Shown here: one piece after another, positions 5,853-48,254 of the stretch
Layout: every line of letters starts with the position of its first letter
Position numbering within the stretch: position 1 is the first letter of the stretch
Source of the DNA: Rhynchopus sp. YZ270_cl-10
Taxonomy: Eukaryota; Euglenozoa; Diplonemea; Diplonemida; Diplonemidae
Direction of reading: 5' to 3'
NCBI GenBank assembly: GCA_964035575.1
Contig: OZ037912.1
Span: forward strand, 434,001 to 498,000
Length of the DNA: 64,000 nucleotides
Made by a program: the position numbers and the translations under genes
Notes under the pieces: generated by a model
The model's input: only the letters and a program-made list of their open reading frames with translations
Told to the model about the DNA's origin: nothing
Database searches by the model: none

Positions 5853-6147
5853 CAGGCTCTCCGCTAGGATTTCCGATTTTGAAAATATTCTGTTGATGGT
5901 CCACGTTGGTGGGGTACATGCTTGCGCCGCAGGCACGGTACGCAACTTTTTTTTTTACCAACGCCCGATTTTGACTTTTTTGGGACGTTTGAGCACTCAC
6001 CTCTCCATATCTTCTTCTCCTGAGCTTTTTTGACAGGTAGAACGGGTCTGAACCACTTAGCAGAACTTTTTTTTTTTTCTTTTTTTCCCCATTTTCAAAA
6101 AGTTCTGTTGACAATCAACAGAACTTTAGTACCTAGCGGAGTGCCTG
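5853..6147 (+). mobile_element. hAT-type MITE, family A, copy 1 (295 bp)
   Basis: Starts CAGGCTCTCCGCTAGG and ends CCTAGCGGAGTGCCTG. It is flanked by a perfect 8-bp duplication ATTTCCCC (5845-5852 and 6148-6155), as produced by hAT transposases. The interior has the GC hairpin plus ACGGTACGCAAC motif near 5925-5947 and a subterminal palindrome around AGTTCTGTTGACAATCAACA. No coding capacity. Two more copies lie at 15484 and 44694. Confidence 0.93.
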
Positions 6148-6214
6148 ATTTCCCCACAGCCTTCCTTCAACCCCCCTGTACGGTGAGGTAAGGTGTAGTC
6201 CGCCTCTACAGCCA

Positions 6215-6345
6215 TACCTGCAGAAGAGTGCTGGGCGTGTTGTAGATTATTTCTGCAGGGTGGAGTTCCGCGAGCAGTGGGTCCCCCCCATATTCACAGC
6301 ACCCAGTCTTTTTTTTTTCGATGGCAATTACTTGGGTTTTGTTTG
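6215..6345 (+). repeat. Short interspersed repeat, family 7
   Basis: Recognised by GGCGTGTTGTAGATTATTTC, AGGGTGGAGTTCC and CGATGGCAATTACTT. Related copies lie at 36463-36562 and 58125-58235. About 110-130 bp with a poly-T run before the last module. Confidence 0.7.
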
Positions 6346-6443
6346 TTTTCTCTCCCCATGCCTTCATCCCAGAGTGCTAAAACAAACTGCATCCAAAAAC
6401 AGACTGGGGGGTGGGTAAGAAGCGTGGTGTGGGCAGTGGTGCC

Positions 6444-7997
6444 ATGCCGTTCCATGCCCTCTGCCTGTTGCTTGCATGTTTCGCAGTGTCTGCAGGTGGA
6501 TTGGAGCGGAGTGCGACAGAGCTCGAGGGGACGACCGGCCTTAGTGAGGTAGTGACCATCATTGTGGAACCGGTATGCATTTTTTTACCGACTTTTTTTA
6601 AACCGACTTTTGCGGTTTCTCCATGGCCCTATGAACAAAGAGCCACAACCACCATCACATGATAGCCTATAACTCAAACCCCCTTCTTTTTTAAATACCC
6701 ACAAAGCGTAGCTTTAAAGGAGAAATAGTTTCCTCAGATACGCCAATCACCCACTCCCATCAAATTGAGCAATCAACGCAAACCTAAAACCCCCCCTTTT
6801 TTCCCCTTTTCCCTATCCGTTACTCTGTTTAACTTATTCAACCCTACTCTAAGAACTGTCTATTCAGTAGAATATTATGAAACAAAAAACCGACAGATCG
6901 ACAGCACATTCGACAAAGATGCGTACATCGCTAGCGTCCGTGCCTCTATGCCCATCACCACTGAGGTAATAATCAAGGCACTGCTCTTCGTGACCGGCAA
7001 CACCGCCAGCTTTGAGGTGGTCTTCACCACCGGCACCGTCTCCCAGAGCACCCTCACGGGGCTTGCCATCGAGCTCATGCGGCAAGCCAACACCGCCGGA
7101 TCTGACCTACGCATCGCACAACCCCTCACGGTGCAGGCTTACTACACCACTGCCGCACCGCAAGGCACCTCAACCCCAGACGGCGACAACGGGCCAAACG
7201 GAGGAGAAATTGCCGTAATAGTAATATGTAGTGTGATCCTCTGTGGTTTGCTGACATGTTGTATAGTCTTTCTGTGTCTCAAGACAAAACGTGATCGGGA
7301 GCATGGGAAAGCACGCAAAGAAAAATCTGGGAAAAAAACCGCGGTTCGGCAGGCCAATGCAGGCAAAGTGCATATCATTGCGACGGCGATCACGATGCAT
7401 CACAACACCATTGAAGCGGGGCTTGACACTATAACCGAACCGGGTGCGGACAAAGCGAAGGCCGTGATTACGATAGAAAAACTCAGAGAGTTTCTGCAGA
7501 CCTGCAGAGTGCCGCATTTGAGCAATGCGTTCATCGCTTCGTTGCGTCGGAGCAAATCGGACCAGGAGCGCGGCGTTGTACGCAGGTCGTATTTACTCAA
7601 CACACTGCGGGCCTCCTTGGCAGGGGGTGCAAAGGGGGAGAAGGGATGTGACCAGACGCTGGTGGACCGTGCCTTTGAATATGAGGTGTGCCCGGTTATG
7701 TACGAGGTCTTCAACAAAGCAGGCGGGCAGGAGGGCAGCACAACAGCAAACCAGCTCCTGCAAGCCATCCGCCAGGACCCGCAGGTGACCTGGACCACGC
7801 AGGCACCGAAGCGCAACTGGGGCGGTCCTATGTTGGCGGAGCTGGACGCACGCAACCCCGCAATGGTAGTGACTTGGGAGGAGTTCGCAACACTCTGTTG
7901 CAGCGCCTTCTCAGAGATGCACGCACGGGAAGGGGCCGGTGTGCAGACACACGAGGTTTGTCTCTTTTTAATTGATTTTTCTGAAGAGAACCAATAA
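6444..7997 (+). CDS. Single-pass membrane protein with signal peptide and cytoplasmic helical domain
   Basis: Exons 6444-6572 and 6897-7997, joined in phase 0 (donor GTATGC, acceptor CCGACAG), give about 409 residues. A signal peptide MPFHALCLLLACFAVSAGG is followed by a short extracellular domain. The splice restores its pattern (VVTIIVEP joined to IDSTFDKDAYIASVRASM), which resembles small ferredoxin-like ectodomains common in euglenozoan membrane proteins. A transmembrane segment lies near residues 145-170 (IAVIVICSVILCGLLTCCIV), then a basic stop-transfer and a helical cytoplasmic part of about 200 residues without a recognised enzyme domain. The last stretch after GVQTHE follows a possible donor (GAG|GTTTGT at 7956). 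The gene may therefore splice on to the next exon at 8226, which continues in the same phase, and the annotated stop at 7997 would then be intronic. Start: first ATG after acceptor AG at 6402. Confidence 0.7.
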
Positions 7998-8189
7998 AAT
8001 GAAATGAAACCTCAAAATGGTTGAGTTTTTTTTGAATCGCAGTTTGATATTTGAGGCACATCTTCTATTAGTGGAAGTCTACAACTCACAGACTCTCCCC
8101 TTTTTTCGTTTTTTTTTTTTTCCCGTTTTTTTTCGTTTTCCTGTGGTGAAAGATAGCTATTGGCACTGTAGTATTTTGATTCCACCACC

Positions 8190-8225
8190 ACCACCCTCCT
8201 CCTCCTCCTCCTCCCCCCTCTACAG
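8190..8225 (+). promoter_or_regulatory. Splice acceptor before the Tudor-like gene
   Basis: A very strong pyrimidine tract (CCTCC repeats) ends in CTCTACAG at 8225, 27 nt before the ATG at 8253. It could accept a spliced leader or the cis donor at 7956. The downstream frame is open in the phase needed for the cis option. Confidence 0.6.
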
Positions 8226-8252
8226 AACAACCCCCTCCTCCTCGTTCCTGTC

Positions 8253-8864
8253 ATGAACACTTTAGAGTTCAAAGCTGGCGACAACGTTTCCGCAGAGTTC
8301 CACGGCGAGTGGTTTCCTGCTGTTGTGACAGAGGCTGTCGGGCAGCGGGACGAACTTCCGGATGGGGGCTATGTTGTGACCTGGGGCGACGGATCGCGCA
8401 CTTTGGTTCAACGGGTTGAGGTGCGGGCTGCGGACACCACTGACACAACACCACCACCACCACCACCACCTCTTGACCCCAACCACCGTGGCATCGACAC
8501 ACAAGACGTCGAAATTCTTTCCGATGCAGGAGGCAACACCGACACATCCGAGGCAAAGGAGGCTGAAGCTGCAGCAGCAGACGCGCCACATGGTGCTGAG
8601 GTGAGCGGATCCGCCGCGTCCGACGCTGCAGGCGACGATGGAGCAGACCTTGAAACACAACCCTCCCTCCCCGCAGCACCCGAAGCGGCTGCTGGCCAAG
8701 ACTACGACCTTGGTGTAAAGGTTCTGGTCCTCTGGGGGGACCCCGCCTCCTGGTATGACGGAACCGTCGTGGGCTACGACTCTACATCGAATACCTACAA
8801 CGTAGACTGGGGGGACGGGACCGGGACAGAGAACATCGCCCCAGAGAGCATTAAAACTGTTTGA
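8253..8864 (+). CDS. Protein with two Tudor-like domains
   Basis: A 203-residue protein. Two small beta-barrel repeats of the Tudor/agenet type flank an acidic Ala/Glu-rich linker. The first spans about residues 5-55 (FKAGDNVSAEFHGEWFPAVV, then YVVTWGDGSRTLV). The second spans about 150-203 (GVKVLVLWGDPASWYDGTVV, then YNVDWGDGTGTENI). Each has the expected WY/WF start and the V.WGDG turn. Such domains usually read methylated lysine or arginine on chromatin or RNA-protein complexes; a target cannot be inferred. A run of seven prolines and an Asp/Ala-rich linker look unstructured. It may be an independent trans-spliced gene or the 3' part of the gene before it. Confidence 0.75.
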   Translation: MNTLEFKAGDNVSAEFHGEWFPAVVTEAVGQRDELPDGGYVVTWGDGSRTLVQRVEVRAADTTDTTPPPPPPPLDPNHRGIDTQDVEILSDAGGNTDTSEAKEAEAAAADAPHGAEVSGSAASDAAGDDGADLETQPSLPAAPEAAAGQDYDLGVKVLVLWGDPASWYDGTVVGYDSTSNTYNVDWGDGTGTENIAPESIKTV

Positions 8865-9292
8865 GATGGCGGGGTCGTTTTAGGAAAAATGCGTTTTCCC
8901 AGATCTCAGGTAAACCATTGCTTATCTGATACCAGCATTGAGTACAGTACGCTAGTCGCCCCATCAAGGTGGGTACTTAGGGGATTGTCGACAACAAAAA
9001 AAGAAAAATGTGGATAATGTGCGTGAAGGGAAAGTGGAGCCCTGTGAAAGAAGATGTGTATGCACGTGAGGCATATTTATTTGTAAAGCTTCCCTTCTCC
9101 CTTCTCCCCTTAGGGAGGGGTAGGGTAATGATGATGAGTCAGCGTGGATTCCACGCACGAACATAGAATTAGGGCTGGGGGGGATGTTATTGTTTTCAAA
9201 GATGTCAGTACCGTACATTCATCTTTGTTAGTTTTTTTATTTTTTTGTTTTTATGAAAGTAAAAGCTTTTTGTTGCGGTTGTTCGGGGAAAC
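8865..9292. other. Intergenic, nothing recognised
   Basis: A short 3' UTR and unremarkable AT-rich sequence. No coding-like stretch or obvious inverted repeat is seen. Confidence 0.4.
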
Positions 9293-9365
9293 CAGTGTCT
9301 GCGTCCGCCGATGAACTGTGAAATGAGGCATTGTTTGCACTTTTCGACCTCTCCTTTTGGCTAAG
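9293..9365 (+). repeat. Short interspersed repeat, family 3
   Basis: GTGTCTGCGTCCGCCGATGA, then GAGGCATTGTTTGCACTTTTC. Copies at 16555-16622 and 44165-44222. Its second half matches the tail of family 2, so the two families share a module. Confidence 0.7.
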
Positions 9366-9689
9366 ATCGTATTTTTTTGTTTTGAAAACTTGATAATGTG
9401 TGTAGACTAACTGTGTAAACTCCACGCAAATTTTTTTGTGTGATTTTTTTTTTCGCAGTTTTTCGTAACTAACGAAAGATCTTACTCAAGCCATGTTTAT
9501 AAGCTTCCCTCGGTTTCTTGCCGTGGTGCCTTTTTTTTTTTGAGGAGAGACAACGGACACAACCTCTTCCTTCCTCTCAAGCTTATTTTTAACCAGCTTT
9601 GCGTACCTTTTTTTCCCCCCTTTTTTTTGGTTGGTCGGCTCTAGATGAAAAGACTCAAGCGCACTTTTTTTTTGTACAGTGAAACGCAT

Positions 9690-9800
9690 ACTCGGGTGCT
9701 TCCAAATAATACAAACCTAGTTTTCAATAAGCAACATTGTTTTTTTAAGGTGACTAAGCATGAGAGACTTAGGTTCATCTTATATAAACTTTTCTTTTCC
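9690..9800 (+). repeat. Short repeats, families 5 (diverged) and 4
   Basis: Near 9695-9735, ACTCGGGTGCTTCCAAATAA and CTAGTTTTCAATAAG resemble family 5. Near 9750-9790, GTGACTAAGCATGAGAGACT, then TAGGTTCATCTTATATAAAC is family 4, with good copies at 27828-27872 and 44555-44580 and diverged ones at 16345, 19240, 19695, 22725 and 36615. Confidence 0.6.
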
Positions 9801-9824
9801 CCCCCGCCATGCCAAATGAAGCTC

Positions 9825-9915
9825 TCTGGGGGGTTCGATAATCCTAGGAGAACCAGTGTCCCCAGTGCGTCCGCCCGATCTACGGTTTTTTATCGCACAG
9901 ATCCCTCTCCCCTCT
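9825..9915 (+). repeat. Short interspersed repeat, family 2 (diverged copy)
   Basis: GGGGGGTTCGATAATCCTAGG then CAGTGTCCCCAGTGCGTCCG. It retains the TTCGATAA hairpin loop of family 2 but the stem has decayed. Confidence 0.5.
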
Positions 9916-10329
9916 TCCTCCAAACTTCATAAAAAAAAAACTCAACGTAGACCGCGAAATGGAAGTAAGCTGGGCGGAGGGTGGGCGTGGCGTGGATATA
10001 TTCTGTTGCGACACGTGATTTTTCCAAGTTTTCAAAAAACCCATTCAAAGATCCCTCCCTCTTTCCCCCTCTTTCCTTGAAGGTGGCTGCCTGTGGAGAG
10101 GCTCAGAGCCATCTTGCTATCTTTGACGCTATCTTTAACGATAGTGGAAAGCTGTGTTCAACAAGAGACACATTCATCTTACAAAAGTGTTTTTTTCTCC
10201 CCCTTGAGTTATTGAAGATCCCTATACTGCCATCAATTTATTGAATGCATACATTGAAATACGTCTTGGGTCTTTAAAATCATGTGTCTCACCCCCTACC
10301 AGGGGAAATGACTATGTGCCTGCAGTTTC

Positions 10330-10432
10330 CCTTCCAAAAGTTCAACACTCCGGGGGGTTCGATACCCTGCGGAGTGTCAAGTGTCTGCGTCCCAAAGGCG
10401 TTTTTGCACATATCAACTTGACTTTTCCCCCC
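10330..10432 (+). repeat. Short interspersed repeat, family 2
   Basis: CAACACTCCGGGGGGTTCGA, then the hairpin closing arm TGCGGAGTG, GTGTCTGCGTCCCAAAGGCG and TATCAACTTGACTTTT. The head folds as a stem-loop. Other copies are at 22245, 48648 and 56500. Confidence 0.75.
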
Positions 10433-11145
10433 CACCCCCTTTTTTCTGAATTAATAGAATTTCACTTCTATTTGATCAAAAAAAATAAAATAACCCCCTT
10501 TTTCTGACCCCCCCGATTAGTAGCATTTCGCGCTTTTTAAAAACTGATGTTTATAGGTCTAACCCTGAACCTTTCAAAAAGAAAGAAAAAAAAAAAAGAA
10601 AAAAAAACCTGTTACAAAAAAAGCTTGCCTCGAAGTAGTATTACCAACCGCTTCTTGTCTATACCAGCACAGTACCTTTAGCTCCCCCACAAATGTAACT
10701 CACCGAGTTAAAAAAAAATTTTTTGGGGGACATAATTTAACAAGAATTTAGTAGTTTTTCATTGACCCGCAAATATTGACTTTTTTCGCAAAACCCAATG
10801 ATTACAAGCATACTACTTGATTGTACCTTGGCCGTTACATTGTGGTTTGCAAATTTGCACTGCCTGTAACAGGATTTTGTGAAGAGTTAATAAATGCACG
10901 TCAATAAAATAGTTTATAGGTCTAACCCGGATTCATCAGCGCCTTTTTTAGCACCCTCCCTTTCTTTTAAGTACTACAATGAACAACTACTCACAACGCA
11001 ATACAAAACAAACGGAGTAGCAAAAACAAAAACAAAAATAAAAACAAACTTACAAAAAACCCCTTTCTTTTTCCTTTTCTTTTTTTGAAGAAAGATGGGA
11101 ACAGTTTTGTTGATCCCTCACCATATACTATCAATTTATTGATTG
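10433..11145. other. AT-rich intergenic with minor repeats
   Basis: No coding-like sequence. TTTATAGGTCTAACCC occurs twice (about 10548 and 10915). ATCAATTTATTGATTGCATAC at about 11129-11149 has a partner at about 10229-10250, which suggests the next large element inserted into a repeat copy. Confidence 0.45.
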
Positions 11146-11159
11146 CATACACGGCGGGG

Positions 11160-11360
11160 CTGTGTCACACCTGTGACACAGCTGAGGGTGTGTAACTTTC
11201 AATGATATGCGACATTTTGTGACAGTGTCACCGTGACACTGTCACAAGCTGTGTGACACTGTCACAAATCGTGTGACACTGTCACGGTGACACTGTCACA
11301 AGTCGTGTGACACTGTCTCCGTGACAGTGTCACAGTGGTGTGACACAGTCACAGTGGCTA
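11160..11360. repeat. Palindromic GTGACAGTGTCAC array (left end)
   Basis: Repeated TGTGACACTGTCAC and its variants ACAGTGTCACGGTGACACTG, spaced by short linkers. Every unit is self-complementary, so the tract can fold on itself in many ways. The same units recur at 15015-15190. Confidence 0.8.
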
Positions 11361-11604
11361 TTGCCTCCCAGGGAAAGGGACTCTCAAAAATTTTTTTTTG
11401 CCCAAAACAGGGCTAATTTCGACGATTTGAGGCCATTAAAAGCAAAAACTGGCACTTTTGAGCATCTGTGGGGGTCTAAAACGCGGTTTGCGCACCCGAT
11501 TTTTCGTGGTTTTTGCCGTAGACAATTTTTTTCTTTAAAAAGTCAATCTGAGGTTTTCTTTGGATTTTTTGGGCCATTTTATGACCTACCACGCCCGATC
11601 TCGG

Positions 11605-12346
11605 CAGGGCGCGCGCTAACTTTTCGGAAATTTCCCGAAAAAATGGATATCGGGTCCAAAAAAATGTACCTACAGGAAGTATGTGAGGGGGGCAGAAAAA
11701 TCAGGGTCATGTTACATTTCCGAGAAAATCCCGGGCTGTGGTGGGGGATATGCGGAAAAATGGACAAAATTTTGGTGACTTAAATTTTCGCAAAATATGA
11801 ACCCATACTCGTAAACAAGGGTCATTTTCAGGTCTTTCGGACAGCCAGTACACAGTACACAGTACACAGTACACAGTACACAGTACACAGTACACAGTAC
11901 ACAGTACACAGTACACAGTACACAGTACACAGTACACAGTACACAGTACACAGTACACAGTACACAGTACACAGTACACAGTACCCATTACCGTGACTTC
12001 ACCAACCAACACCGGAAAACACCGGCAAACATGGTCAAAATCAGGTGGAATATACATAAGCACATCATGGGGGGGTAGGGAACAGGTAGCGCCGCAGGCG
12101 CACGGTACCCAACTTTTTTCTTTTTTCTTTCCCCTTTTCTCTGCTTTCTTTTGATTGCGCGAGCCGATTGCTCTCCACGGTGGGGTCACATGTGTGTCCA
12201 AAACTATCTGAAGTGCCCTTACTGTACAATATGGGATTCTCTGATTTTCTTAAGGAATCGTGTAATCAAAAAATTTTTGTACCGCGAAAAAACCTCGAAA
12301 AAACCGGGTGTGAGGGTGTGAGGGTGTGGATTTAGCGCGCGCCCTG
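11605..12346 (+). mobile_element. hAT-type MITE, family B, copy 1 (742 bp)
   Basis: Ends CAGGGCGCGCGCTAA and TTAGCGCGCGCCCTG are inverted repeats. They are flanked by a perfect 8-bp duplication GATCTCGG (11597-11604, 12347-12354). It contains an ACTGTGT heptamer array (reverse strand) and, near 12089-12113, the GCGCCGCAGGCGCACGGTAC motif. A second copy in opposite orientation is at 46106-47227. No coding capacity. Confidence 0.93.
11845..11982. repeat. Heptamer microsatellite (CACAGTA)n, about 19 units
   Basis: Uninterrupted ACACAGT repeats inside MITE B copy 1. The same locus in copy 2 holds about 72 units, so the array has changed length since the copies separated. Confidence 0.95.
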
Positions 12347-12599
12347 GATCTCGGGCGGGGAAAAAAAAATTTTTTTTTAGTCAAAAATCGCCCTTATCTA
12401 ACCACTGTTTAGGTAGGTTCTGGGGGCTGGTGCTGACATACATGCATGTCCATTCCACAGGTTGCGGGGGTCCCAGATGTTGCCCGGGTAAAGGGTCATA
12501 TGATGTATATAATTGCACAGTTTATACAGTGCAAACTGTTGTTTCATTAGATGCGATGCAATGACAGAGTATTGTTGCTTTATTTCATTTCAGTCCTCA

Positions 12600-14330: not shown

Positions 14331-14639
14331 GCCAGATGGCTAGCTTCGTCGTGCAGCACCTGCATCATGCGAAACACCTCGTCCTGCGTCGCTGGCACCG
14401 CTCTTCGATGCGAGTGCAGAGCTCCTTCTCGAAGGGCCCTCCGGAAACAAGCGTTAAGTCTCCTTTACCGTCACGAACAACAACAAAAGAGTGGGAAGAA
14501 GGCAACATGTTTCAGCAAAACAAAATTTTAGATTGCAAGCTGTTATGTTGGGTCAAATGTCGGAATAGGCAAACCCGCAACCCGGCGTTTCTTTCTTCTT
14601 CTCTTTCTCTTCGAAGCAACAACCCAACCGATCGAGCGG

Positions 14640-14810: not shown

Positions 14811-14905
14811 ACCTTCGGTGGGCTCAGACTCGTGCCAGTGGTGCGGGCAAACCCGCCCTGTGTGTGGGCCGATATTGACAGGTCTTTGACACAAAGGGGT
14901 CCATA

Positions 14906-15483: not shown

Positions 15484-15781
15484 CAGGCTCTCTGCTAGGA
15501 TTTCCGATTTTGAAAATATTCTGTTGATGGTCCACGTTGGTGGGGTACATGCTTGCGCCGCAGGCGCACGGTACGCAACTTTTTTTTTTACCAACGCCCG
15601 ATTTTGACTTTTTTGGGACGTTTGAGCACTCACCTCTCCATATCTTCTTCTCCTGAGCTTTTTTGACAGGTAGAACGGGTCTGAACCACTTAGCAGAACT
15701 TTTTTTTTTTTTCTTTTTTTCCCCATTTTCAAAAAGTTCTGTTGACAATCAACAGAACTTTAGTACCTAGCGGAGTGCCTG
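15484..15781 (+). mobile_element. hAT-type MITE, family A, copy 2 (298 bp)
   Basis: Starts CAGGCTCTCTGCTAGG and ends CCTAGCGGAGTGCCTG, with an exact 8-bp duplication GTTTTGTG (15476-15483, 15782-15789). It is nearly identical to copies 1 and 3, which indicates recent spread. Confidence 0.93.
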
Positions 15782-34594: not shown

Positions 34595-35405
34595 GGGGTG
34601 AAGGCTGGATTGTGTGATGCGAAAAGAAACGGTCGTAACATAAGGTGTTAATGTGACATTGGGTAAGCTTTTTTTTGTGGGAAGATGTGTTGAATTATTT
34701 GGGGGGTTTTTTTGGGGTGCGTTTCGTGTTATCTTGACTGGGTTTTTTGTGCTGTGTGTTGATAAATTATTGGAGTGTTGTCGCCTCGGTTGTGTTGCCA
34801 CAGTTGTGCAATCACCACTTTTTTCTTTTATCTCCGAAAGAGTCCTTCTTCTTCTTCAATCATCGTCTGTCTGGTTCTCATTGTGAAGTATTTCCCCCCC
34901 TCTCTTAGCCAAAGTAGGTTTGTTTAAAACTTTCGTAATTTTTTTGCGGTATTTTTTTTTTTGGTTTTATCGTGTGACCAAAAAATGTTCAAGAATCATC
35001 CAACAGCTTTCAACAACCCCCCTGTACACACAGCACTTCGTTGTGCCTGCTGAATGTGTCCTATCGAGAGTGGCTTTTGATCTGAGAATCTCAGAAGAAA
35101 AAAAAAAAACAGCCGTGCAAAGGGTCAGATCCCCTGAGGCTGATATGTTTGAAAATCAATTAATGGGGGTAAATACCTCAGCGGAATATTGGTCCTTCAG
35201 GTGTCGTGTGTGCGTTCATTCACCCACCTCCGACGCCTCAGGCAATCTGCTCTGTTTTAGTTTAAGGTTTCCTTTTTACATCTACTGCTGTAGACCGCAG
35301 GGTACTTTGTGGTTTCATCCAGATGGCTGGCATCGTACAAGTGGGTCAGTAGGGAGGTGCCTGTATCGATAACTACAGCTTTAATTTTATTTTTTCTCTT
35401 TTTTT
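34595..35405. other. Intergenic with families 6 and 1
   Basis: A family 6 copy in reverse orientation lies at 34752-34825 (GATAAATTATTGGAGTGTTG). A family 1 copy lies at about 35275-35375 (GATGGCTGGCATCGTAC, GGTGCCTGTATCGATAACTA). The rest is T-rich; a short ORF at 35040-35270 is not convincing. Confidence 0.5.
35275..35375 (+). repeat. Short interspersed repeat, family 1
   Basis: TACTGCTGTAGACCGCAGGG, ATCCAGATGGCTGGCATCGT, GGGAGGTGCCTG and ATAACTACAG. Copies at 37555-37612 (interrupted by a transposon) and 48525-48620. Confidence 0.75.
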
Positions 35406-35409
35406 TTTT

Positions 35410-35907
35410 CCCAACCTTCCTGTATACACGCGTCAGCAACCAATACAGGTAGTGTATTGAAATGATTCTGGGGGGGGGTAAGGGGTCTAATTTTAATTTC
35501 GTCGATTTTGAGAAAAATTTTGGCCAAAAATGGGCCCCACGTATAAGGAACCGGGCTCATATTTCTCAAAATTTAAGTGGTCAAAAAATTGTCCAATTTT
35601 CCGAAATGACCCCACCGCTGCACGGGCGGAGCCCAAAAATGCAAATAAGCCACTTTTTCCCAACCTTCCTGTATACACGCGTCAGCAACCAATACAGGTA
35701 GTGTATTGAAATGATTCTGGGGGGGGGTAAGGGGTCTAATTTTAATTTCGTCGATTTTGAGAAAAATTTTGGCCAAAAATGGGCCCCACGTATAAGGAAC
35801 CGGGCTCATATTTCTCAAAATTTAAGTGGTCAAAAAATTGTCCAATTTTCCGAAATGACCCCACCGCTGCACGGGCGGAGCCCAAAAATGCAAATAAGCC
35901 ACTTTTT
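35410..35907. repeat. Tandem duplication, two units of 249 bp
   Basis: Unit 1 (35410-35658) and unit 2 (35659-35907) appear identical over their whole length, from CCCAACCTTCCTGTATACAC to AATAAGCCACTTTT. The unit contains the CGAAATGACCCCACC motif seen in several mobile elements here. Identity indicates a very recent duplication or an assembly artefact. Confidence 0.9.
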
Positions 35908-36869: not shown

Positions 36870-37483
36870 CAGGGTCCTAGCTTGGTTTTGAAAAAAAATG
36901 CCAAATCTGGGTCAGAATTTTTTTTTTGGGTCAGCAGAGGTTTTGGGCCTTGGGGGGCTTGTCTTGGCTTTTTTGGGTTTTCCGAGCTCTACCCTCACTG
37001 TGGTGGGGTCATTTCAGAAAAATGGACAAGTTCTTGACTGATACAAATTTTGGTCACTACGACTAGTGAGTTGCTCACAACGTTAAATGGAACTCTACTA
37101 TAACCATAAAAATCACTCCCCGTTCATAGATCACCCAACACAAAATATATAAAATGGCGCCGCAGGCGAAAAAAATTAGGGTACGGTGTAAAAATGTAGC
37201 TTTTTACACCACAGAGTCACTCTACGAACCCTTTTTTGCGGAGCAAAAAAGGAAAAATGGCGCCGCAGGCAAAAAAAATTGGGCCCAGCCCTGGACGGTG
37301 CCGGATTTTTTTGTCGATATTTTTTTCTTACCCAGAAATGGTGGTGGGCCCCCCAAAGAGGGAAAAAAATCAGAATTTCCCAATTTCCAAATTAATTAAT
37401 TCCCTTTTTTTTTTTTTTTCGTGGGTCGCGACCCAGGCACTTGGGTCAGCTTGACCCACTGACCCAGGCAAGCTAGGACTCTG
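36870..37483. mobile_element. hAT-type MITE, family D (614 bp)
   Basis: Ends CAGGGTCCTAGCTTG and CAAGCTAGGACTCTG, with an exact 8-bp duplication CTTTTGTG (36862-36869, 37484-37491). The interior has two copies of ATGGCGCCGCAGGC (about 37153 and 37257) with GGTACGGTGTAAAAATG between them. A related internal block occurs in the element at 55797. No coding capacity. Confidence 0.9.
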
Positions 37484-38858: not shown

Positions 38859-40114
38859 GGTGTGGCGCGTTACCCTACTTTTCAAGTACATACACACTAC
38901 ATAAGAACTACACAAAAATGACTTTTTTTTGGGGGTGTTTAAGGGAAAAAATATTTTTTAGAAGTGACCTTTTTTTGGGGGGTCCGGGGCCGGAAAATTT
39001 TTTCACCAATTTTTGCCTACAAAAAATCGGGAATTTTTTTTTTTTGTTTCGGTTCTTCCGAGTCTGTGCGTGCTGTGATGGGGTCACTTTGCGCTGAGAA
39101 ATGAGTACTTTTGACCTAAAATGCATGTGTCAGTTTTATACAGGCCATTTTCAGGTTTTGTGTGCAAAATATGCTCAGTACTTGACTTTGAAGGAAAAAT
39201 GCAAAGTGAACGTGGGAGCAGTTAGCATAGCTGCGAACTTTGCTGCATGTTGTGACCCACCATTTGACGGACGGAGCTCGTAGAACCCAATGAGGAGTGA
39301 GAAAGAAGGACATGGTCAAATAAAAAAGTAGCGTACCGTGCGCCTGCGGCGCAAGCTTGCATTCCACCCTCCCCATGACATAGCTTGGCTGTAAAACAAA
39401 GTGCATTTTTAAGCGCAATTTTTTGAAATGTTGCGTACCGTGGCTTCGCCAGAACGCAGTTTTCTCGAAGTCTTCTTGCTCTTGAACATTGCAAGTCGGA
39501 AAATGGGATACTCTCGCACGGGTTTTGGAGGCTGCGGTCGTGCACTCCCCGTCTTCGGTTGCTGTTGAACGAGGATTCTCTCTCCTGGACCACATCTACG
39601 CAAAGAGACGCCACCGCCTTTCTCACAGCACTATTGAGAAGCTGATGATTCTTCATGAACAGGCGCCCGAGTTTAATACCGAAGAGATGGGGAATATTCT
39701 TGAACACGCCGTTGTCCTGTTTCTCAGCGACAAGCGTCACAGGTTCAAAAGAAAACGGAGGGCGGAGGAGTTGGAAGACTTCGCTTCCCCCGTATTTGTT
39801 TCCGGAATTGAGCTTATGAGGACCTTTTTCGCGCGCAGCGCGTATGTTCGAAACGTATCGTGGGCAAAAAAAAATCATGATTTTCACCACCAGCCATGGA
39901 CCAAGGTCGAAAAATGTCTGATTCCTGTGTAGAAAAACCCGTAAAAAAACCGGAATTCCAAGCCCGAAAGTGCGATTTTTGTAGCTGTTTTGTAGCGTCA
40001 GGCCTGCTCTAACACAATGGGTGGGAAAATTTTTTTTACCCCCCCTTTTTACAATACATGAGCACTACATAAGAACTACACAAATATGACTTTTTTTTTG
40101 GGGCGTGCCACACC
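38859..40114. mobile_element. Inner element with GGTGTGGC ends
   Basis: Starts GGTGTGGCGCG and ends CGTGCCACACC. The subterminal sequence TACATAAGAACTACACAAA occurs inverted near both ends. The left 600 bp is homologous (reverse complement) to 47480-48112, so this and the element at 46002 are one family. No convincing target duplication. It contains the transposase remnant below. Confidence 0.7.
39489..39932 (+). pseudogene. hAT transposase C-terminal dimerisation domain remnant
   Basis: The open stretch reads VHSPSSVAVERGFSLLDHIY, then AKRRHRLSHSTIEKLMILHE. This is the C-terminal hAT dimerisation motif (S...ERxFS...KRxRLxxxxxxxLxxLxx), followed by about 80 charged residues. The catalytic core is absent upstream, so this is a truncated relic. 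GC content and codon use are coding-like. Confidence 0.8.
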
Positions 40115-40293
40115 AAAATATTTTTTTTACGGGCACTTTTGTCAAGTAGGTTTCCCCTTAGACCCCCTAGACCCCTCGTGCAAAAAAAAAGGGGCAACGT
40201 GGGACCTTATAGCCGTGCAAAAAAAAGGGGCGCACTTTTTTTCAAAAACCCGCGGGTACCGGGTACAGACTTAGGATATGCCCTGTCAGTAAC

Positions 40294-41023: not shown

Positions 41024-43443
41024 ATGCCTACCCTCCCTGCCCTGTCTCTTGCCACCCTTCTTTTATTAGCCTCTGGAGTGACTGAGTCTCACACACAGCC
41101 GGCAGGACCCTCCTCAGCCTCCTCTTCTGTTGCCACTACTGGCGCTGTTGAAGATGTGCCGATTCCTGTTGCACGCAAAGCAACTGGGAGTAAGTTTGCT
41201 TGGGTGACGATTTACTATGAGGTTGGAAAGAACGACGCGGAGTACCATTTAGGTGCGAGAGTGTTGATGCGCAGCATAAAAGAGTCCGGAACCGAGGCGG
41301 ATCGTGTTGTATTGATTGCGGAAGGCACACAACAGAAATACGCAGATAAATTCATTGAAGACGGCCTCAAGCTCGAATGGGTACGCAACATCGACTCTCC
41401 GTGGTCAAAGACCCTTCGCCGTTTTGCTTTTGCATTGAACAAACTCAAAATCTGGGCGATGACAGAATATGACCGTGTCATCTTCCTTGATGCCGACGTT
41501 ATTGTGTTGCAGCCTGCTGATTTTATGTTTAATTGCGGGCATTTTTGTGCAGTCTTTTTTAACCCAATCAACTTTCACACTGCGATTCTTGTTGTCAAAC
41601 CGGACAAAGCGATTTACGATGACATGGTGAAGAAGATCAACGACGGAATGGCATCATTCGACGGAGCGGACCAGGGGTTTATCAACTCTTACTTCACAGG
41701 ACTCAACGCGGCAAAGGAGTGGACCAAGGCACTCCCACCCAGCGAAGACAAAATGAACCGTCTCCCCGTGAACTACAACATGCACCACATCTACTACTAT
41801 GAAAAGATGTCCTGGGGAGGGCCCTGGGGCCGTGGTGAAGACATCGTGACCATGACCTACCCCATTGCACAGTTCGGCAAGCCCTGGGTCTGGTACGGCT
41901 ACCCCATGATGGACATGCACTTCCTCTGGCTGAAATACCGCAACCAAATCGACGTGGCCTCGGACTACCCGGTCCAGATCTGTGTGCTCCTGATGGCACC
42001 CCTTCTGCATTTGGTGCTCTCTCAGGTAAATGTTTTTTTTTTTGACCCCTCTCCTCCCCCAATTCCGAGTCCTTTTGCCTCCCTTTGGACGGTATCTGCC
42101 CTCAAGGTGACCTCCAGCTTTTCTGTCTCCACCAAAGTCCCCGCCTCCTTGCACTCCGCGATGTGCTTGATTCTCTCTCCGCGGCCTGCACGTGGTTCCC
42201 TGCTGCCAGGAGTCTTTTGATTTTGCTCCTGTCCGCATCCTGTCGTATTCTGACTTCGACACGGGAGCCTCCACAGCCTTCGCATCTCGCTTCTGCTTCG
42301 CCAGCGCTGGAGATGAACATCGCGTTCAGGACCACCTTTCTCGTGATCATCGCACAGTACAGCGCAGGTTTCCCGATGAAGACACCGAGCGAGGCAAGTT
42401 TCATCCTCTTCTTGATCAGCTTATCCGCAAGCGCAGCCTCCTTCTTCCTACTCCAATGGCGATCCCAAGTCACGGAGAAGTCAACGCCTGCGCCCATGTG
42501 CAGAGGGCTGAGGGTGTCCTGCGGCTCGCAAGTAGTGGCGTTTGGACACTTGCACTGCACAGGCACAAACAGCACCAAGAACCACAACGCGTAGCCCTCA
42601 GGGTCTGACTGCTGAGACGGCTGAGAAGACCCCTGAATCTGCGGGATGCGGGATCGCAAGATCTACGTGAACCGTGCACACACTTCCCTTGCACCTCACG
42701 GTGTCTTTGCCCGCGGCAAAAGCATTTTGCAGTCCCTTCACTGCCAACTTTTCCAGCATTTGCTGGGAGAGAGTTTTTCCCTTCCCCTTCCCCTTCCTTG
42801 TCCGCAATCTACTTTTCTTTTATGTTCCAGCTGTCCTCCACAAAATTCTAAATAGACCCTTAACATTCTCTTTACCAATTGAATTTACAATTTTTTTTTC
42901 ACCATCATCTCAGATCCTGAAGCGCTACCCTGGTGGCAAAGCGACTGGCCGCGAAGACGTGGAAAGCCAGAGCCGCGAGGGTGTGTGGTTCTCCTGGGGG
43001 CGCAACAGCAGCATTGTGGTGCTGTCGGGCTTTGCCTTCTCGATGGTGGCGGTCTTTGTGGCGGGGCTTGTGGCGCCGACGATTCTTCCGCCGATGTTGG
43101 GATGGGGCATCTTCTTGTCATACTACACAGTGGTGTTCTACTACCTGTGTGCCTTCGCGTGGAAGCGGGTCTACGGCAGCAAGCTGCGACTAGAGAACCA
43201 CCACCTCGCACTCTACGTGGCCCCGTGGGCAGTGTGCTTCTGTGTGATGGCATACCCAAGCTACCCGCATGGTATCATCAAGCTGCTCTGGATCTTCGCA
43301 GCGTTGCTCCTCTCCGCGGCAGCGAATTTGGCGCTGTTTAAGGTATTTCCCCCTAATTAGAAACCAGAAATAATAAATGATAACAAACTCTTTTCGCTTT
43401 TTCCCAGATCCCTAAAAAAATGTGTGGACCCCATTTTTTGTGA
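41024..43443 (+). CDS. Glycogenin-like GT8 glycosyltransferase with C-terminal membrane segments, three exons
   Basis: Exons 41024-42025, 42914-43342 and 43408-43443, all in phase 0, give 488 residues. Donors are GTAAAT and GTATTT; acceptors are ATCTCAG and TTCCCAG. A signal peptide (PTLPALSLATLLLLASGV) is followed by a GT-A nucleotide-sugar transferase domain of family GT8: FAWVTIYYEVG at the nucleotide pocket; RRFAFALNKLKIWAMTEYDR; the metal-binding DxD in FLDADVIVLQ (about residue 157); and GADQGFINSYF. Exon 2 supplies three or four hydrophobic segments (such as LSGFAFSMVAVFVAGLVAPT). The last exon encodes IPKKMCGPHFL. Glycogenin and PGSIP-type enzymes share this layout; attachment of glucose, glucuronate or similar in the secretory pathway is inferred from the signal peptide. 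Intron 1 is unusually long (888 nt) and holds antisense coding-like sequence. Confidence 0.85.
42060..42807 (-). pseudogene. Antisense coding-like sequence inside the GT8 intron
   Basis: On the minus strand, GC-rich stretches with favoured codons run in changing frames: LSQQMLEKLAVKGLQNAFAA; then ALADKLIKKRMKLASLGVFI and GKPALYCAMITRKVVLNAMF; then LAKQKRDAKAVEAPVSKSEY; then GERIKHIAECKEAGTLVETE. Together they suggest a helical, lysine-rich protein with a hydrophobic segment, either broken by frame changes or containing small introns I cannot define. No family is recognised with confidence. The host intron is spliced in frame without it. Confidence 0.45.
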
Positions 43444-44693
43444 ACAAAGCATTGACGAATATAAATGGAAAAGCAATAGATTGTATGTGCTCGCCTAAGC
43501 GGGTTTGTGGGGTTGTTGTTTTCTACTAACGGATACTTATTCATATTCTGCAAGCGAAACATTTACAAGCCTTTTGAGATAAACGAAAAAAGTGTTTTCT
43601 TCTTCTATTTCATTCAACTGTCATATTTGGGGGATCTATGATCGTCTCCGTGAGACACGTGACAGGCTGTGAGAGTCTGTGAGAGCTTGGGAGAGCCTGT
43701 GTGACCTTACTGAGAGCTAGTGAAAAAATCTCTCCTCGTTTGTAGATCACCCAATATTATGAAGTCGTTTTTCTATTTTATTTTATTTTATTTTTACAGA
43801 ACGTTTACGATACAAACATGCGGTGATGACTGAAGCAGCAAAAGGGGGGGGGAGTACAAAGCTATTCTTGCCAATACTCCTTTTTAGACGGAAGGTTTGT
43901 GGAAAAAAATGCGAAAAAAATAAAATAAAAAGGGAGTTGACAGAGGTAGGGACTGCAAACGGCAGGTCGTACCTCAGCTAACAACCCCGCGAGTTGAAAC
44001 GAAAGCAACCGAGAAGAAAATACCATAAAAAAAAACAAAAACAAAAACAAAAAAAAACGAAGAAAAAGAAATAGGCGGGGAATTACTCCATTTTTTGTTA
44101 TTTTTTACGGATATTATTGTGATCACGGTGGTGGGGTGGGGGTTTTTTTTCTTTCAGTGCAAATACCCTGCGTCCGCCGATGAACGGTGAGGCATTTGCA
44201 CTTCCTTCTTCTCTTTGTTTTGCCGTCCTGCGTGGGAATACGCTTCATTATTATTTTTTTGGGATTTGATGGGGTAAAAACAGTCCCCCCCCTCCTCCTC
44301 CAACGTCTGAGCACACATTTCACCCAAAGTTTTTGCCCAGCTTTCTGTTTTTTCGTTAAGATTATTTCCATCAAAGGTGACATAACCCGCTGTGAGGATG
44401 AGGCTTTTCTCTCTCTCTTTTTTTGGAGCGACTGGTGTGCCTGCCGTATGCATTGCAGGTCTTCCTCGGAAACGCCCTTTAAACCTCCTCTCTTTTTTCA
44501 GTCCCTTTTACCCTGTTTTTTTTTGTTGCATTACCTCAAGATGGCCTATACATATGGCTTAGGTTCATCTTACAAAATTTTCTTTTTTCTTTGTTTTGTA
44601 TGATCGTGACGCAGCTGTTCTTGAAGCATGCATTTAAAAGGACAGCTCTCACTTTCGAATCCTCTTTTGTGTTTTTTTTTTTGACAAGTATTT
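43444..44693. other. Intergenic with families 9, 3 and 4
   Basis: Family 9 (GAGACACGTGACAGGCTGTG) is at 43640-43750. Family 3 (GCGTCCGCCGATGAACGGTG) is at 44165-44222. A family 4 tail (GGCTTAGGTTCATCTTACAA) is at 44553-44580. The rest is A/T-rich with ATTTT runs. No coding-like sequence. Confidence 0.5.
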
Positions 44694-44988
44694 CAGGCTC
44701 TCCGCTAGGATTTCCGATTTTGAAAATGTTCTGTTGATGGTCCACGTGGTGGGGTACATGCTTGCGCCGCAGGCGCACGGTACGCAACTTTTTTTTTTTC
44801 AACGCCCGATTTTGACTTTTTTGGGACGTTTGAGCACTCACCTCTCCATATCTTCTTCTCCTGAGCTTTTTTGACAAGTAGAACGGGTCTGAACCACTCA
44901 GCAGAACTTTTTTTTTTTTTTTTTCCCCCCCATTTTCAAAAAGTTCTGTTGACAATCAACAGAACTTTAGTACCTAGCGGAGTGCCTG
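44694..44988 (+). mobile_element. hAT-type MITE, family A, copy 3 (295 bp)
   Basis: Same ends as copies 1 and 2, with an exact 8-bp duplication AAGTATTT (44686-44693, 44989-44996). The internal poly-T length differs slightly from the other copies. Confidence 0.93.
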
Positions 44989-45049
44989 AAGTATTTAAGG
45001 ATCCTGTAAAATATTGTGGCTGCTATCTTGTAGTCTTTTTATCAAAAAA

Positions 45050-45552
45050 CACGGGTCGGGAAAGATCTTTTTTTTTTTTTTTTTTTTCGAGAAAAAAAAT
45101 CCTCTTCTCCCGAAAAAAAAAAAAAAAAAAAGATTTTTGGGAGAAAAAAAAAAAGAGAAAAGATTTGAAAATCCTGGGAAAATCCTGAAAAAATCCTGAA
45201 AAATCCTGGAAAAATCCATGAAATTTCATGAAAAATCTCGAGATCTTGAGAAATCTTTGAAAAAAAAAAAAAAGATTTTCAAAATCTTTTTTTTTTTTTT
45301 TCCCAAAAAGATTTTTCAAAATCCCAAAAATCTTTTTTATCTTTTTTTTGAGAAAAAAAAGATTTTCAAGATCTTTTTCATCTTTTTTTCTCTTTTTTTC
45401 CTTTTTTTTTCAGGATTTTTCAAAGATCTCAAAGATCTCGAGAGATCCTGAAAAAAAAAGACAAAAATCCTGAAAATCTTGATTTTTTTTTTTTTTCTCC
45501 CGAGATTCTCGAAAAAAGACAAAAAAAGACAAAAGATCTTTCCCGACCCGTG
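45050..45552. mobile_element. Low-complexity inverted-repeat element (CACGGGTCGGG ends)
   Basis: CACGGGTCGGGAAAGATCTT at 45050 is mirrored by AAGATCTTTCCCGACCCGTG ending at 45552 (20 bp exact). Between them the sequence is almost only AAAATCCTG, GATTTTTC and AGATCTTTT repeats in both orientations, so the whole can fold back. Target duplication is hidden in poly-A. Confidence 0.75.
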
Positions 45553-45576
45553 AAAAAACAAAAAAAAAATTGACAG

Positions 45577-45709
45577 TACTGTTAGGCCAGTTGACGCCAG
45601 GGGTCGGTTTAGGAAATTTGCCTATTTTTTTTCTGGGATATCGTGTCCCATACCCTCTCATACCCTCCCATATCCTTACCACACCGTGACGTCAACTGGT
45701 CTAAGTAGC
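45577..45709. mobile_element. Small hairpin MITE (TTAGGCCAGTTGACG ends)
   Basis: TTAGGCCAGTTGACGCC at the left is mirrored by GACGTCAACTGGTCTAA at the right with a few mismatches, enclosing about 100 bp with CATACCCTCTCATACCCTCC. Confidence 0.65.
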
Positions 45710-45894
45710 AGTTTGTTGCAAAATACGTCCCTCCTTGCCTCCTTTCCGGAAAAAAAAGAGACGATTCTACCAATCACCATCCCCTGGAAAAAGAGAAGGG
45801 GAAAAAAAAATTGCTGATAATATGCAGGGTGTCAAAAATGATTAAAAATTAGAGTTGCCTTTAGGTCATTCTTCTATCTGCCGTGGGGGGGAAA

Positions 45895-45960
45895 TAGTGA
45901 TGTTATACAGGGTGGCAGCACAACAGAGACAGCTACACCACTATAACAGTTTATTAAAGG
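45895..45960 (+). repeat. Short interspersed repeat, family 6 (diverged)
   Basis: ACAGGGTGGCAGCACAACAG, GCTACACCACTATAACAG and TTTATTAAAG match family 6 with about 75% identity by eye. Confidence 0.55.
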
Positions 45961-46105
45961 GGACTAAGCATGAGGCTGGGGCTGATCTTAGTAACTATAC
46001 TGGTGTGGCCCGCCCCAAAATAAAGTCAAAAAAATGTACTTCTAATGTACTTCTAATGTATGGTAAAAAAAGGGGGGTAAAAAAATTTTTCCCACCCATA
46101 CTGAC

Positions 46106-47227
46106 CAGGGCGCGCGCTAAATCCACACCCTCACACCCGGTTTTTTCGAGGTTTTTTCGCGGTACAAAAATTTTTTGATTACACGATTTCCTTTAGAAAA
46201 TCAGAGAATCCCATATTGTACAGTAAGGGCACTTCAGATAGTTTTTGGACACACATGTGACCCCACCGTGGAAAGCAATCGGCTCGCGCAATCAAAAGAA
46301 AGCAGAGAAAAGGGAAAAGAAAAAAGAAAAAAGTTGGGTACCGTGCGCCTGTGGCGCTACCTGTTCCCTACCCCCATGATGTACTTATGTATATTCCACC
46401 TGATTTTGACCATATTTCGGGTTTGCGGGTTTGTGGGTTTGCCGGTGTTTTCCGATGTTGGCCGGTGAAGTCACGGTACTGTGTACTGTGTACTGTGTAC
46501 TGTGTACTGTGTACTGTGTACTGTGTACTGTGTACTGTGTACTGTGTACTGTGTACTGTGTACTGTGTACTGTGTACTGTGTACTGTGTACTGTGTACTG
46601 TGTACTGTGTACTGTGTACTGTGTACTGTGTACTGTGTACTGTGTACTGTGTACTGTGTACTGTGTACTGTGTACTGTGTACTGTGTACTGTGTACTGTG
46701 TACTGTGTACTGTGTACTGTGTACTGTGTACTGTGTACTGTGTACTGTGTACTGTGTACTGTGTACTGTGTACTGTGTACTGTGTACTGTGTACTGTGTA
46801 CTGTGTACTGTGTACTGTGTACTGTGTACTGTGTACTGTGTACTGTGTACTGTGTACTGTGTACTGTGTACTGTGTACTGTGTACTGTGTACTGTGTACT
46901 GTGTACTGTGTACTGTGTACTGTGTACTGTGTACTGTGTACTGTGTACTGTGTACTGTGTACTGTGTACTGTGTACTGTGTACTGGCTGTCCGAAAGACC
47001 TGAAAATGACCCTTGTTTACGAGTACGGGTTCATATTTTGTGAAAATTTAAGTCACCAAAATTTTGTCCATTTTTCCGTATATCCCCCACCACAGCCCGG
47101 GATTTTCTCGGAAATGTAACATGACCCTGATTTTTCTGCCCCCCTTCACATACTTCCTGTAGGTACATTTTTTTGGACCCGATATCCATTTTTTCGGGAA
47201 ATTTCCGAAAAGTTAGCGCGCGCCCTG
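46106..47227 (-). mobile_element. hAT-type MITE, family B, copy 2 (1122 bp)
   Basis: Same CAGGGCGCGCGCTAA ends as copy 1, opposite orientation, with an exact 8-bp duplication ATACTGAC (46098-46105, 47228-47235). It is longer than copy 1 only because the heptamer array has expanded. Confidence 0.93.
46477..46985. repeat. Heptamer microsatellite (TACTGTG)n, about 72 units
   Basis: A 509-bp pure array of TACTGTG. Because 7 is not a multiple of 3 and the unit lacks stops, all three frames are open for about 170 codons (YCVLCTV). These open frames are not genes. Confidence 0.97.
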
Positions 47228-48254
47228 ATACTGACGTAGTCAGTGTGCATAATAAAAGGGTACCGAGCTTTCCCCCCGCAAAAAGCGGTCGCTGCGCGCG
47301 CTTCGCGCACGCGACTCCCTGCTAGTGCAAGAAGGTGAGGCTCTTTCTCACCCCTGATGCACAAAATCGTGAAAGGCGGGTGGGTGAACCACAAGCCGTA
47401 GTGGGATCAGTAACCTCAGTGCCTCTATAAAAGAAGAGGCGGTCATGGCATCCAAAGGTTCCAGGCGAAGCCACGGTACGCAACATTTCTGAAAAATGTT
47501 GCCACAAAATGGCGCTGTCGTTCGTAATTAACGTCACTTTCCGTAAATTTTACTTACGTATTTCGCTAAAAACGAAAGCTTCTGGCGAAGCCACGGTACG
47601 CAACATTTCAAAAAAAAATGCGCTTACAATTGAACATTTTACAGCCAGACTACGACATGGGAAGAGTGCAAGCTTGCGCCGCAGGCGCACGGTACGCTAC
47701 TTTTCTTCTTTCGCTATGCCGCATGCTTCCTTTTACAGTAAAATAAAAGAAAATTGTCATCTGAAAATAGAGTTCTGTGGGGGTAAGGTGAGGGGTGGGG
47801 CTCCGCACCAAACCTGAAAACAGCCTGTAAAACTGATACATGCATTTTAGGTACAAAATACTCATTTCTCAGCGCAAAATGACCCCACCACAACACGCAC
47901 GGACTCCGGAGAATCGGGAAAGAAAAATTTTTTTTTCGATTTTTTGTGGCAAAAATTGTCCGAAAAATTTTTTCGTCCCCCCCCCGGACCCCCCAAAAAA
48001 AGTCACCTATAAAAAAAAGTTTTTTCCCTTAATCACGCCTAAAATAAAGTCAAAAAAATGTACTTCTAATGTACTTCTAATGTACCCCAAAAACCGGGTT
48101 TCGGGCCACACCAATTATACTATTTTTTTTGTTAAAGTCCATTCACAATCCGTGAGGCAAGTTTTTTTTTTAAATGGACGATAAAAAAATCTTGCCAGAC
48201 CTCCCCTACCTCAGTCCATTTGTCGACAGCAAGAAGGAGGGGGGGGGGGGGGGG

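What the first reader, a model, noticed from the sequence alone, without database searches (positions are those of the whole stretch)
5853..47700. A GC hairpin plus ACGGTACGCAAC motif shared by unrelated transposable elements
GCGCCGCAGGCGCACGGTAC or GGCGAAGCCACGGTACGCAA, followed by AAC and a T-run, occurs in family A MITEs (5925, 15555, 44763), family B (12089, 46335 reverse) and the GGTGTGGC elements (39328 and 39430 reverse; 47463, 47583, 47672). These families have different ends and otherwise different sequence. A conserved core in unrelated elements may be a shared transposase or host-factor site, a replication or promoter signal, or a captured small repeat. I know of no named feature that fits.
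Basis: seen in the sequence. Interest (0 to 1): 0.75.

Follow-up and report, generated by a model that had tools for sequence, protein, structure and literature searches.

The report
Hairpin tag shared by hAT transposons
A roughly 25-letter DNA tag, made of a tiny hairpin and a fixed word, is kept almost unchanged inside many otherwise different non-coding jumping genes of one eukaryote, which suggests it is a handle those elements need in order to move.

Summary
CACGGTACGCAAC occurs 3,876 times in the 152-Mb genome against 6 for the reversed control, nearly always after a C-GNA-G mini-hairpin (34 of 36 local sites). The elements are not unrelated in kind: 43 of 68 motif sites lie between CAG-type inverted repeats with 8-bp target duplications, against 10.6% of random positions. 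They are hAT-type, mostly non-autonomous transposons with about 18 end types (my count). Hairpin and motif are their most widely shared words. Where flanks are alignable between elements, they differ at 52 of 397 bases upstream and 77 of 503 downstream; the motif differs at 0 of 223, with one 2-base deletion. Within family A, motif and downstream flank decay alike (543 and 529 exact 30-mers). So selection acts on spreading lineages, not on resident copies. No RNA structure beyond the hairpin and no Rfam family was found. Best reading: a cis-acting transposition site recognised by a trans factor shared by many hAT families, probably a hAT transposase DNA-binding domain. Binding is untested, and the two long-frame transposase loci I could check have no exact motif nearby.

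The parts
5853..6147 (+). Family A, hAT-type MITE, 295 bp, TIR CAGGC(T/A)CTCCGCTAGG, TSD ATTTCCCC on both sides
5924..5946 (+). Hairpin (arm 2 bases short) plus CACGGTACGCAAC, then T-run
11605..12346 (+). Family B, hAT-type element, 742 bp, TIR CAGGGCGCGCGCTAA, TSD GATCTCGG on both sides
12089..12113 (+). GCGCCGCAGGCGC hairpin plus CACGGTACCCAAC, then pyrimidine tract
12177..12189 (+). Second conserved block ACGGTGGGGTCAC, 68 nt after the end of the GCGCC...ACGGTAC word
15484..15781 (+). Family A copy, 298 bp, TSD GTTTTGTG
15555..15579 (+). Hairpin plus CACGGTACGCAAC
36870..37483 (.). hAT-type element, TIR CAGGGTCCTAGCTTG, with a variant arrangement: GGCGCCGCAGGCG hairpin, A-run, then reverse complement of CACCGTACCCTAA (about 37156-37188)
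39328..39352 (-). GCGCCGCAGGCGC hairpin plus CACGGTACGCTAC
39430..39450 (-). GGCGAAGCC hairpin plus CACGGTACGCAAC, followed by ATTTC
39486..39932 (+). Remnant of hAT transposase C-terminus (PF05699 dimerisation region, E 6e-4, 19.9 bits, below the curated cutoff of 21.4), antisense to the motif
44694..44988 (+). Family A copy, 295 bp, TSD AAGTATTT
44764..44788 (+). Hairpin plus CACGGTACGCAAC
46106..47227 (-). Family B copy, 1,122 bp, TSD ATACTGAC, lengthened by a 14-bp satellite and lying inside the GGTGTGGC element 46002-48112
46333..46357 (-). Hairpin with altered loop (GCGCCACAGGCGC) plus CACGGTACCCAAC
46002..48112 (+).
47464..47484 (+). GGCGAAGCC hairpin plus CACGGTACGCAAC
47584..47604 (+). 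Second GGCGAAGCC hairpin plus CACGGTACGCAAC
47676..47700 (+). GCGCCGCAGGCGC hairpin plus CACGGTACGCTAC
55797..56349 (.). hAT-type element, TIR CAGGGAAATAGCTTG, with the variant hairpin arrangement (about 56016-56049)

Best explanation
The motif is a cis-acting site of a large, diversified set of mostly non-autonomous hAT-type DNA transposons in one genome, probably that of a diplonemid or another euglenozoan. It consists of a C-GNA-G mini-hairpin, ACGGTACSCWAC and usually a T-run. Shown: many copies sit inside TIR/TSD-delimited elements, the motif is held nearly constant between families whose ends and bodies have diverged, it has one orientation within each element examined, and in family A it decays like its downstream flank after insertion. 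Inferred: it is bound in trans by a factor these families share, most likely the BED-type DNA-binding domain of a hAT transposase, as an internal counterpart of the subterminal repeats of known hATs. Elements losing it are no longer mobilised, so each spreading lineage keeps it while end sequences drift or are exchanged.
For: Enclosure in hAT-type elements: 43 of 68 sites against 10.6% of random positions. Constraint between families: GCGCC sites found only through their neighbouring GGCGAAGCC site, so not selected on their own sequence, are identical over 25 nt in 15 of 16 cases; in flanks of one type 52 of 397 and 77 of 503 bases differ, in the motif 0 of 223 plus one 2-base deletion (Fisher p 3e-11 and 1e-13). 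In family A no protection relative to the downstream flank after insertion. One strand only in all 20 elements examined, 9 families having 2-3 copies. From papers: hAT-derived DNA-binding domains often prefer CGG, CGC or GCGC (PMC8097297, passages); Hermes binds repeats of its left end with BED domains and none at the right end (PMC10368747, passages); Kat1 depends on TIRs and subterminal repeats (PMC4763223, passages).
Against: The transposase that would bind the site should come from an element carrying it. The two long-frame hAT-domain loci on C1, where the motif lists are complete, have no exact motif nearby (C1:1524804, 848-residue frame, nearest 7.7 kb; C1:1896953, 1066-residue frame, nearest 49 kb); for two short-frame loci the nearest motif is 3.3 kb away in a separate family A element (C1:613409) and about 5 kb away (C2:746169). 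13 of 53 rows of the closer remnant class and 5 of 33 of the other lack the 41-nt piece within 3 mismatches. The motif lies 94-1036 bp from one end and 201-1817 bp from the other, deeper than usual subterminal repeats. 25 of 68 sites are not enclosed by a recognisable TIR/TSD pair, and 11 of 23 hAT-type elements of the 264-kb sample lack the motif even with 2-3 mismatches allowed. Families with different TIRs are normally served by different transposases. 25 nt with a hairpin is longer than a BED-finger site. Upstream flanks change type exactly at the hairpin edge, which fits recombination too.
Confidence: 0.42

Rival explanations
1. Recombination hub. The stable hairpin stalls gap-repair synthesis after excision and the short motif provides homology for template switching, so elements keep exchanging ends around it. 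It is shared because exchange happens there, not because it is bound.
For: Flanks change type at the hairpin edge: B copies with two different upstream sequences and the same downstream one, and one downstream type with several upstream types. L015 and L018 differ as expected from deletion between two motif copies. At C2 a transposase remnant (884855-884953) ends 8 bp from a motif (884961-884973) (that junction was not read).
Against: Does not explain 0 of 223 changes against 13-15% in flanks of the same type, or the 41-nt piece kept beside a decayed transposase remnant, unless conversion tracts are only about 25 nt long.
Confidence: 0.22
2. Transcription signal of the ancestral transposase gene. 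In transposase orientation the reversed motif lies just upstream of the remaining coding part, so it could be a promoter or leader element inherited by internal-deletion derivatives.
For: In all 68 linked cases the motif lies upstream of the remnant on the transposase strand; same in the window element.
Against: Non-coding copies need no promoter to be moved, yet the motif stays conserved in lineages with only remnants. The two long-frame loci checked have no exact motif nearby. 'Upstream' is only where a deletion junction placed it.
Confidence: 0.17
3. RNA-level element: small RNA, terminator or splice signal. ACG/GTACGC resembles a 5' splice site and some copies are followed by TTTTACAG.
For: GNA hairpin followed by a T-run; splice-like words in some S copies.
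Against: Folding z-scores of ten representatives (-1.6 to 1.8) are no lower than those of control windows (mean -0.94, sd 1.50); only one downstream piece reached -2.4. No Rfam match at gathering threshold in the window, and only chance-level matches in 12 loci. No consistent AG at the expected place in the aligned families (by eye).
Confidence: 0.08
4. A small mobile repeat that inserted into many hAT families and now hitch-hikes.
For: Similar cores with different flanks.
Against: I noticed no insertion duplication around the core, but made no systematic search for one; single orientation within each element; the strict limit of conservation is about 25-29 nt, short for an element.
Confidence: 0.07

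Closest known systems
Subterminal repeats of hAT transposons (Hermes, Kat1, Tol2, Ac/Ds)
   Same: Short internal sequences of hAT elements needed with the TIRs, bound by N-terminal BED domains, asymmetric between ends in Hermes (PMC10368747, PMC4763223, passages read; Ac/Ds recalled, Tol2 from a cited title)
   Different: Known repeats are short, many-copied, near the tips and particular to one family (partly recalled); here a 25-29 nt hairpin-motif unit in 1-3 copies lies deeper and is shared by about 18 end types
hAT-derived CGG-binding proteins (CGGBP)
   Same: hAT-type DNA-binding domains often preferring CGG, CGC or GCGC, with matches in subterminal regions of the source elements (PMC8097297, passages)
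   Different: No protein has been tied to this motif
Non-autonomous hAT MITEs such as Mar of Drosophila
   Same: Short TIRs, internal-deletion origin with relic transposase (PMC3517528, abstract and passages); 8-bp TSD of hATs is recalled
   Different: MITE families normally share ends and differ inside (recalled); here ends differ and an inner core is shared
d(GCGAAGC) and GNA mini-hairpins
   Same: GCGAAGC and GNA loops closed by G-C pairs are the known extraordinarily stable DNA mini-hairpins (PMC4686876, passages)
   Different: The passages I read concern aptamers; a role in a transposon is only inferred here

Membership tests
hAT superfamily, non-autonomous elements | 8-bp target site duplication | tested here: met
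   8 of 8 or 7 of 8 for the elements around the 43 enclosed sites, as the scan required; eight family A copies: six exact, two 7 of 8. Chance level: 4 pairs in reversed sequence against 46
hAT superfamily, non-autonomous elements | Short TIRs beginning CA(G) | tested here: met
   Listed elements begin CAG and end CTG, with one CAAGG end; the scan required CA
hAT superfamily, non-autonomous elements | Relation to a hAT transposase | tested here: inconclusive
   One of the motif elements read here has a remnant (PF05699, E 6e-4, below the curated cutoff; no other in the 324 kb held); 68 remnant rows genome-wide lie next to the motif. No autonomous partner was read
hAT subterminal repeat | Bound by the transposase BED domain | not testable with these tools
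   Needs a binding assay
hAT subterminal repeat | Lies near the element tips, usually many copies | tested here: not met
   1-3 copies; 94-1036 bp from the 5' end and 201-1817 bp from the 3' end in 20 elements
SINE sharing a LINE tail | Shared part at the 3' terminus, no TIR | tested here: not met
   Motif is internal; elements have TIR and TSD
Known structured RNA family (Rfam) | Covariance-model match | tested here: not met
   0 at gathering threshold in the window; 6 chance-level matches, E 1.2 or more, in 12 loci
Introner (intron-generating transposon) | Element carries usable splice sites at or near its ends and lies in genes as introns | not tested
   No transcript data; splice-like words noted only

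The most novel reading that the evidence does not exclude
A single trans-acting factor reads a hairpin-forming 25-nt tag that serves as a common mobility handle for many hAT families with different ends. Family identity is then set by the tag and not by the terminal repeats, and the same hairpin drives swapping of ends between families: a modular transposon system in which ends are interchangeable and the inner tag is the constant part.
Probability: 0.2. Interest if true: 0.78.

Novelty: new variant of a known kind. Interest (0 to 1): 0.55.

Why it matters
DNA transposon families are normally grouped by their ends, since the ends are what the transposase must recognise. Here the ends vary and a short inner hairpin word stays fixed across about 18 end types. 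If it is a mobility handle, it would explain how so many non-coding families are amplified in one genome and would change how such families should be classified. It also gives a testable candidate for what a BED-type domain reads, and a natural setting for the ultra-stable GNA DNA mini-hairpin.

Tried and rejected
Protein-coding relic (open frames such as LAKPRYATF and CAAGARYATF): the 25-mer does not vary at third positions in 15 of 16 copies, most frames are short, and a protein search gave only 8 hits, all from unnamed 'ena' contigs. 5' splice site or SL-acceptor reading: no consistent AG downstream (by eye). Structured RNA. Motif in viruses or prokaryotes: 0 exact matches to two patterns in viral contigs and to one in genome contigs. 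The 13-mer is in no paper of the held library. Searches for a printed description of such a shared core listed none whose title or abstract start described it; listings only, except the papers named as read. A protein match to the transposase remnant in the 324 kb held found only the window copy at a meaningful E-value.

Counts with limits: the C1 loci L001-L030 were fetched because they carry the exact 13-mer, and L053-L072 because they carry the exact hairpin, so only the partner feature is unselected there. C1 400001-600000 was picked by me as one block, not for its motifs, but after I had seen the C1 motif list. In one search the site pattern missed the window copy at 5946, whose element is delimited. 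In one search, five of the 16 sites had no TIR/TSD pair found and were each counted as a type of their own; each flank type has 9 of those 16 sites, the rest left out as not homologous, and three of the nine in the upstream set have no delimited ends. In one search, 5 of 26 anchors had no GCGCC site downstream and a sixth matched only a second GGCGAAGCC site; nothing lay between 4 and 8 edits otherwise. In one search, I dropped 3 of 26 rows (A-rich CAA ends) before counting 12 of 23. One search grouped ends by single linkage at 12 of 15 matches, giving 13 groups for 42 elements, of which 10 hold the motif word; that set is biased towards the motif. 'About 18 end types' is my count by eye (19 listed, three of them similar).
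Full report
What was checked. All ten motif sites of the finding are in the window. The window is a stretch of contig C80 of an unnamed 152.4-Mb genome. A tyrosyl-DNA phosphodiesterase gene next to the elements is 53% identical to a transcript labelled Rhum in EukProt, which I read as Rhynchopus humris, a diplonemid (one search confirms only the lineage of that name). Two loci carry the tail of a Diplonema-like spliced leader shortly before what look like reading frames (the leader sequence is recalled). The host is therefore probably a diplonemid; this rests on few data.

More than chance. CACGGTACGCAAC occurs 1,953 times forward and 1,923 times reverse, against 5 and 1 for the reversed control. 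The two sister words and the hairpin are similarly enriched. Among 36 exact 13-mers in 324 kb, 26 have GCGAAGC and 8 CCGCAGG directly upstream; one has GCGAGGC and one has no hairpin; at random positions the rate is 0.56%. Of the first 100 listed GCGCC hairpins, 80 run into an exact motif and 20 into a degenerate one. Both stems close with C-G on a GNA triloop, the class described as extraordinarily stable in DNA (PMC4686876, passages).

What the elements are. Family A is a 295-298 bp element with TIR CAGGCNCTCCGCTAGG and 8-bp target duplications: six of eight copies exact, two with one mismatch. Family B has TIR CAGGGCGCGCGCTAA and duplications GATCTCGG and ATACTGAC. It holds a remnant of a hAT transposase C-terminus on the strand opposite to the motif. 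A scan for such TIR/TSD pairs found 46, against 4 in reversed sequence; it enclosed 43 of 68 motif sites and 10.6% of random positions. Those 43 sites lie in 29 elements with about 18 end types (my count). In the 264 kb not chosen for the motif, 12 of 23 credible hAT-type elements carry it. Two of the end types without it carry a variant in which the hairpin lies on the other side of the homopolymer run. The genome has at least 139 hAT dimerisation domains, many in long open frames. The element 46002-48112 ends in GGTGTGGC and has near-matching 9-bp flanks; its superfamily is unresolved.

Are they homologous throughout? No, but not wholly unrelated either. Families F4 to F15 share parts around the GGCGAAGCC and GCGCC sites, mostly 60-240 bp and up to about 430 bp between F11 and F13; B relates to the B-like families; A shares only about 30-56 bp with the others. 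Other pieces away from the motif are shared between some elements too, partly through nested insertions. A second block, ACGGTGGGGTCAC, follows the motif in B and a few other families.

Conservation. Taking GCGCC sites found only because they lie near a GGCGAAGCC site, 15 of 16 are identical over 25 nt and one has a 2-base deletion; mean pairwise identity between types is 0.990, against 0.43 and 0.46 for 40 nt on either side (five of the 16 sites have no delimited ends and count as types of their own). Much of that flank difference comes from flanks of different type. In the fairer comparison, with flanks of one type only (9 sites each), 52 of 397 upstream and 77 of 503 downstream bases differ from consensus and 0 of 223 motif bases do. 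Within family A, exact 30-mers number 543 for the motif, 529 downstream and 381 upstream. So in that family the motif is not protected more than the downstream flank after insertion. The constraint lies in what gets copied.

Relation to the transposase. A 97-residue C-terminal remnant has at least 150 matches in the genome. Of the 86 rows I entered, 68 have the motif with 20 nt of its flank on the same strand just upstream, 18 do not within 3 mismatches, and none has the opposite arrangement; 68 of 69 places of that 41-nt piece have the remnant. In the class whose remnant has fallen to 62-67% amino-acid identity, 28 of 33 still have the 41-nt piece with 2-3 mismatches; copies of one family are not independent, so this is in effect a comparison of two or three lineages. 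It speaks for a DNA-level role in lineages that no longer code for a whole transposase. Against it, the two long-frame transposase loci on C1 have no exact motif within 7 kb.

How it most likely works. Shown: location, orientation, conservation between families, decay within one. Inferred: a shared trans factor, probably a hAT DNA-binding domain. This fits reports that such domains often read CGG, CGC or GCGC (PMC8097297, passages) and that Hermes gathers BED domains on repeats of one end (PMC10368747, passages). The hairpin may be part of the recognised shape, or may stall synthesis during gap repair; the change of flank type at its edge fits the latter, and both may be true. No RNA-level role is supported.

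Verdict. A real, strongly conserved cis-element of hAT-type non-autonomous transposons, a variant of the known subterminal-site theme but longer, deeper and shared across families. Interest is moderate to good; the decisive tests are binding and excision assays and reading the autonomous partners.

Noticed in passing
window 36870-37483 and 55797-56349; C1 531340-531954; also inside C1 625523-626275 and 979109-979802, which carry the usual motif as well: Elements in which the parts are rearranged: hairpin, A-run, then the motif in reverse complement (CACYGTACCCTAA), as if motif and run had been flipped beside the hairpin.
   Followed up: partly
264 kb (window and C1 400001-600000): Perfect palindromes with 3-nt loops and stems of 8 or more are concentrated in hAT-type elements: 20 of 41 in 6.4% of the DNA, against 10 of 89 for loops of 4-8 nt. 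Copies of one family count repeatedly.
   Followed up: partly
window 12177-12189, 46257-46269 and several C1 loci: A second shared block, ACGGTGGGGTCAC, preceded by TTTTGAYTnnnCGAGCCRATTGC or similar, follows the motif at a spacing of 63-79 nt in B, F4 and two other types.
   Followed up: partly
C1 and other contigs: Many family-B-type motifs come in same-strand pairs about 600 bp apart; the pair read in L022 (C1 865226-866339) is one element with TIR CAGGCTTYGCGCTAA and TSD CCCCCAAC.
   Followed up: partly
L031, L032: Spliced-leader-like tails directly in the genome shortly before what look like reading frames, possibly retrocopied mRNAs of a trans-splicing organism.
   Followed up: no
window from about 46475 to 47000, 51169-51613 and 35405-35902: Young-looking tandem arrays: a 14-bp satellite inside the family B copy, a 10-bp array, and an exact 249-bp duplication.
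   Followed up: no
G000, residues 61-93 class: Dozens of copies of a 33-residue transposase scrap; one of them (C2:884855-884953) ends 8 bp from a motif at C2:884961-884973. The sequence there could not be fetched.
   Followed up: partly
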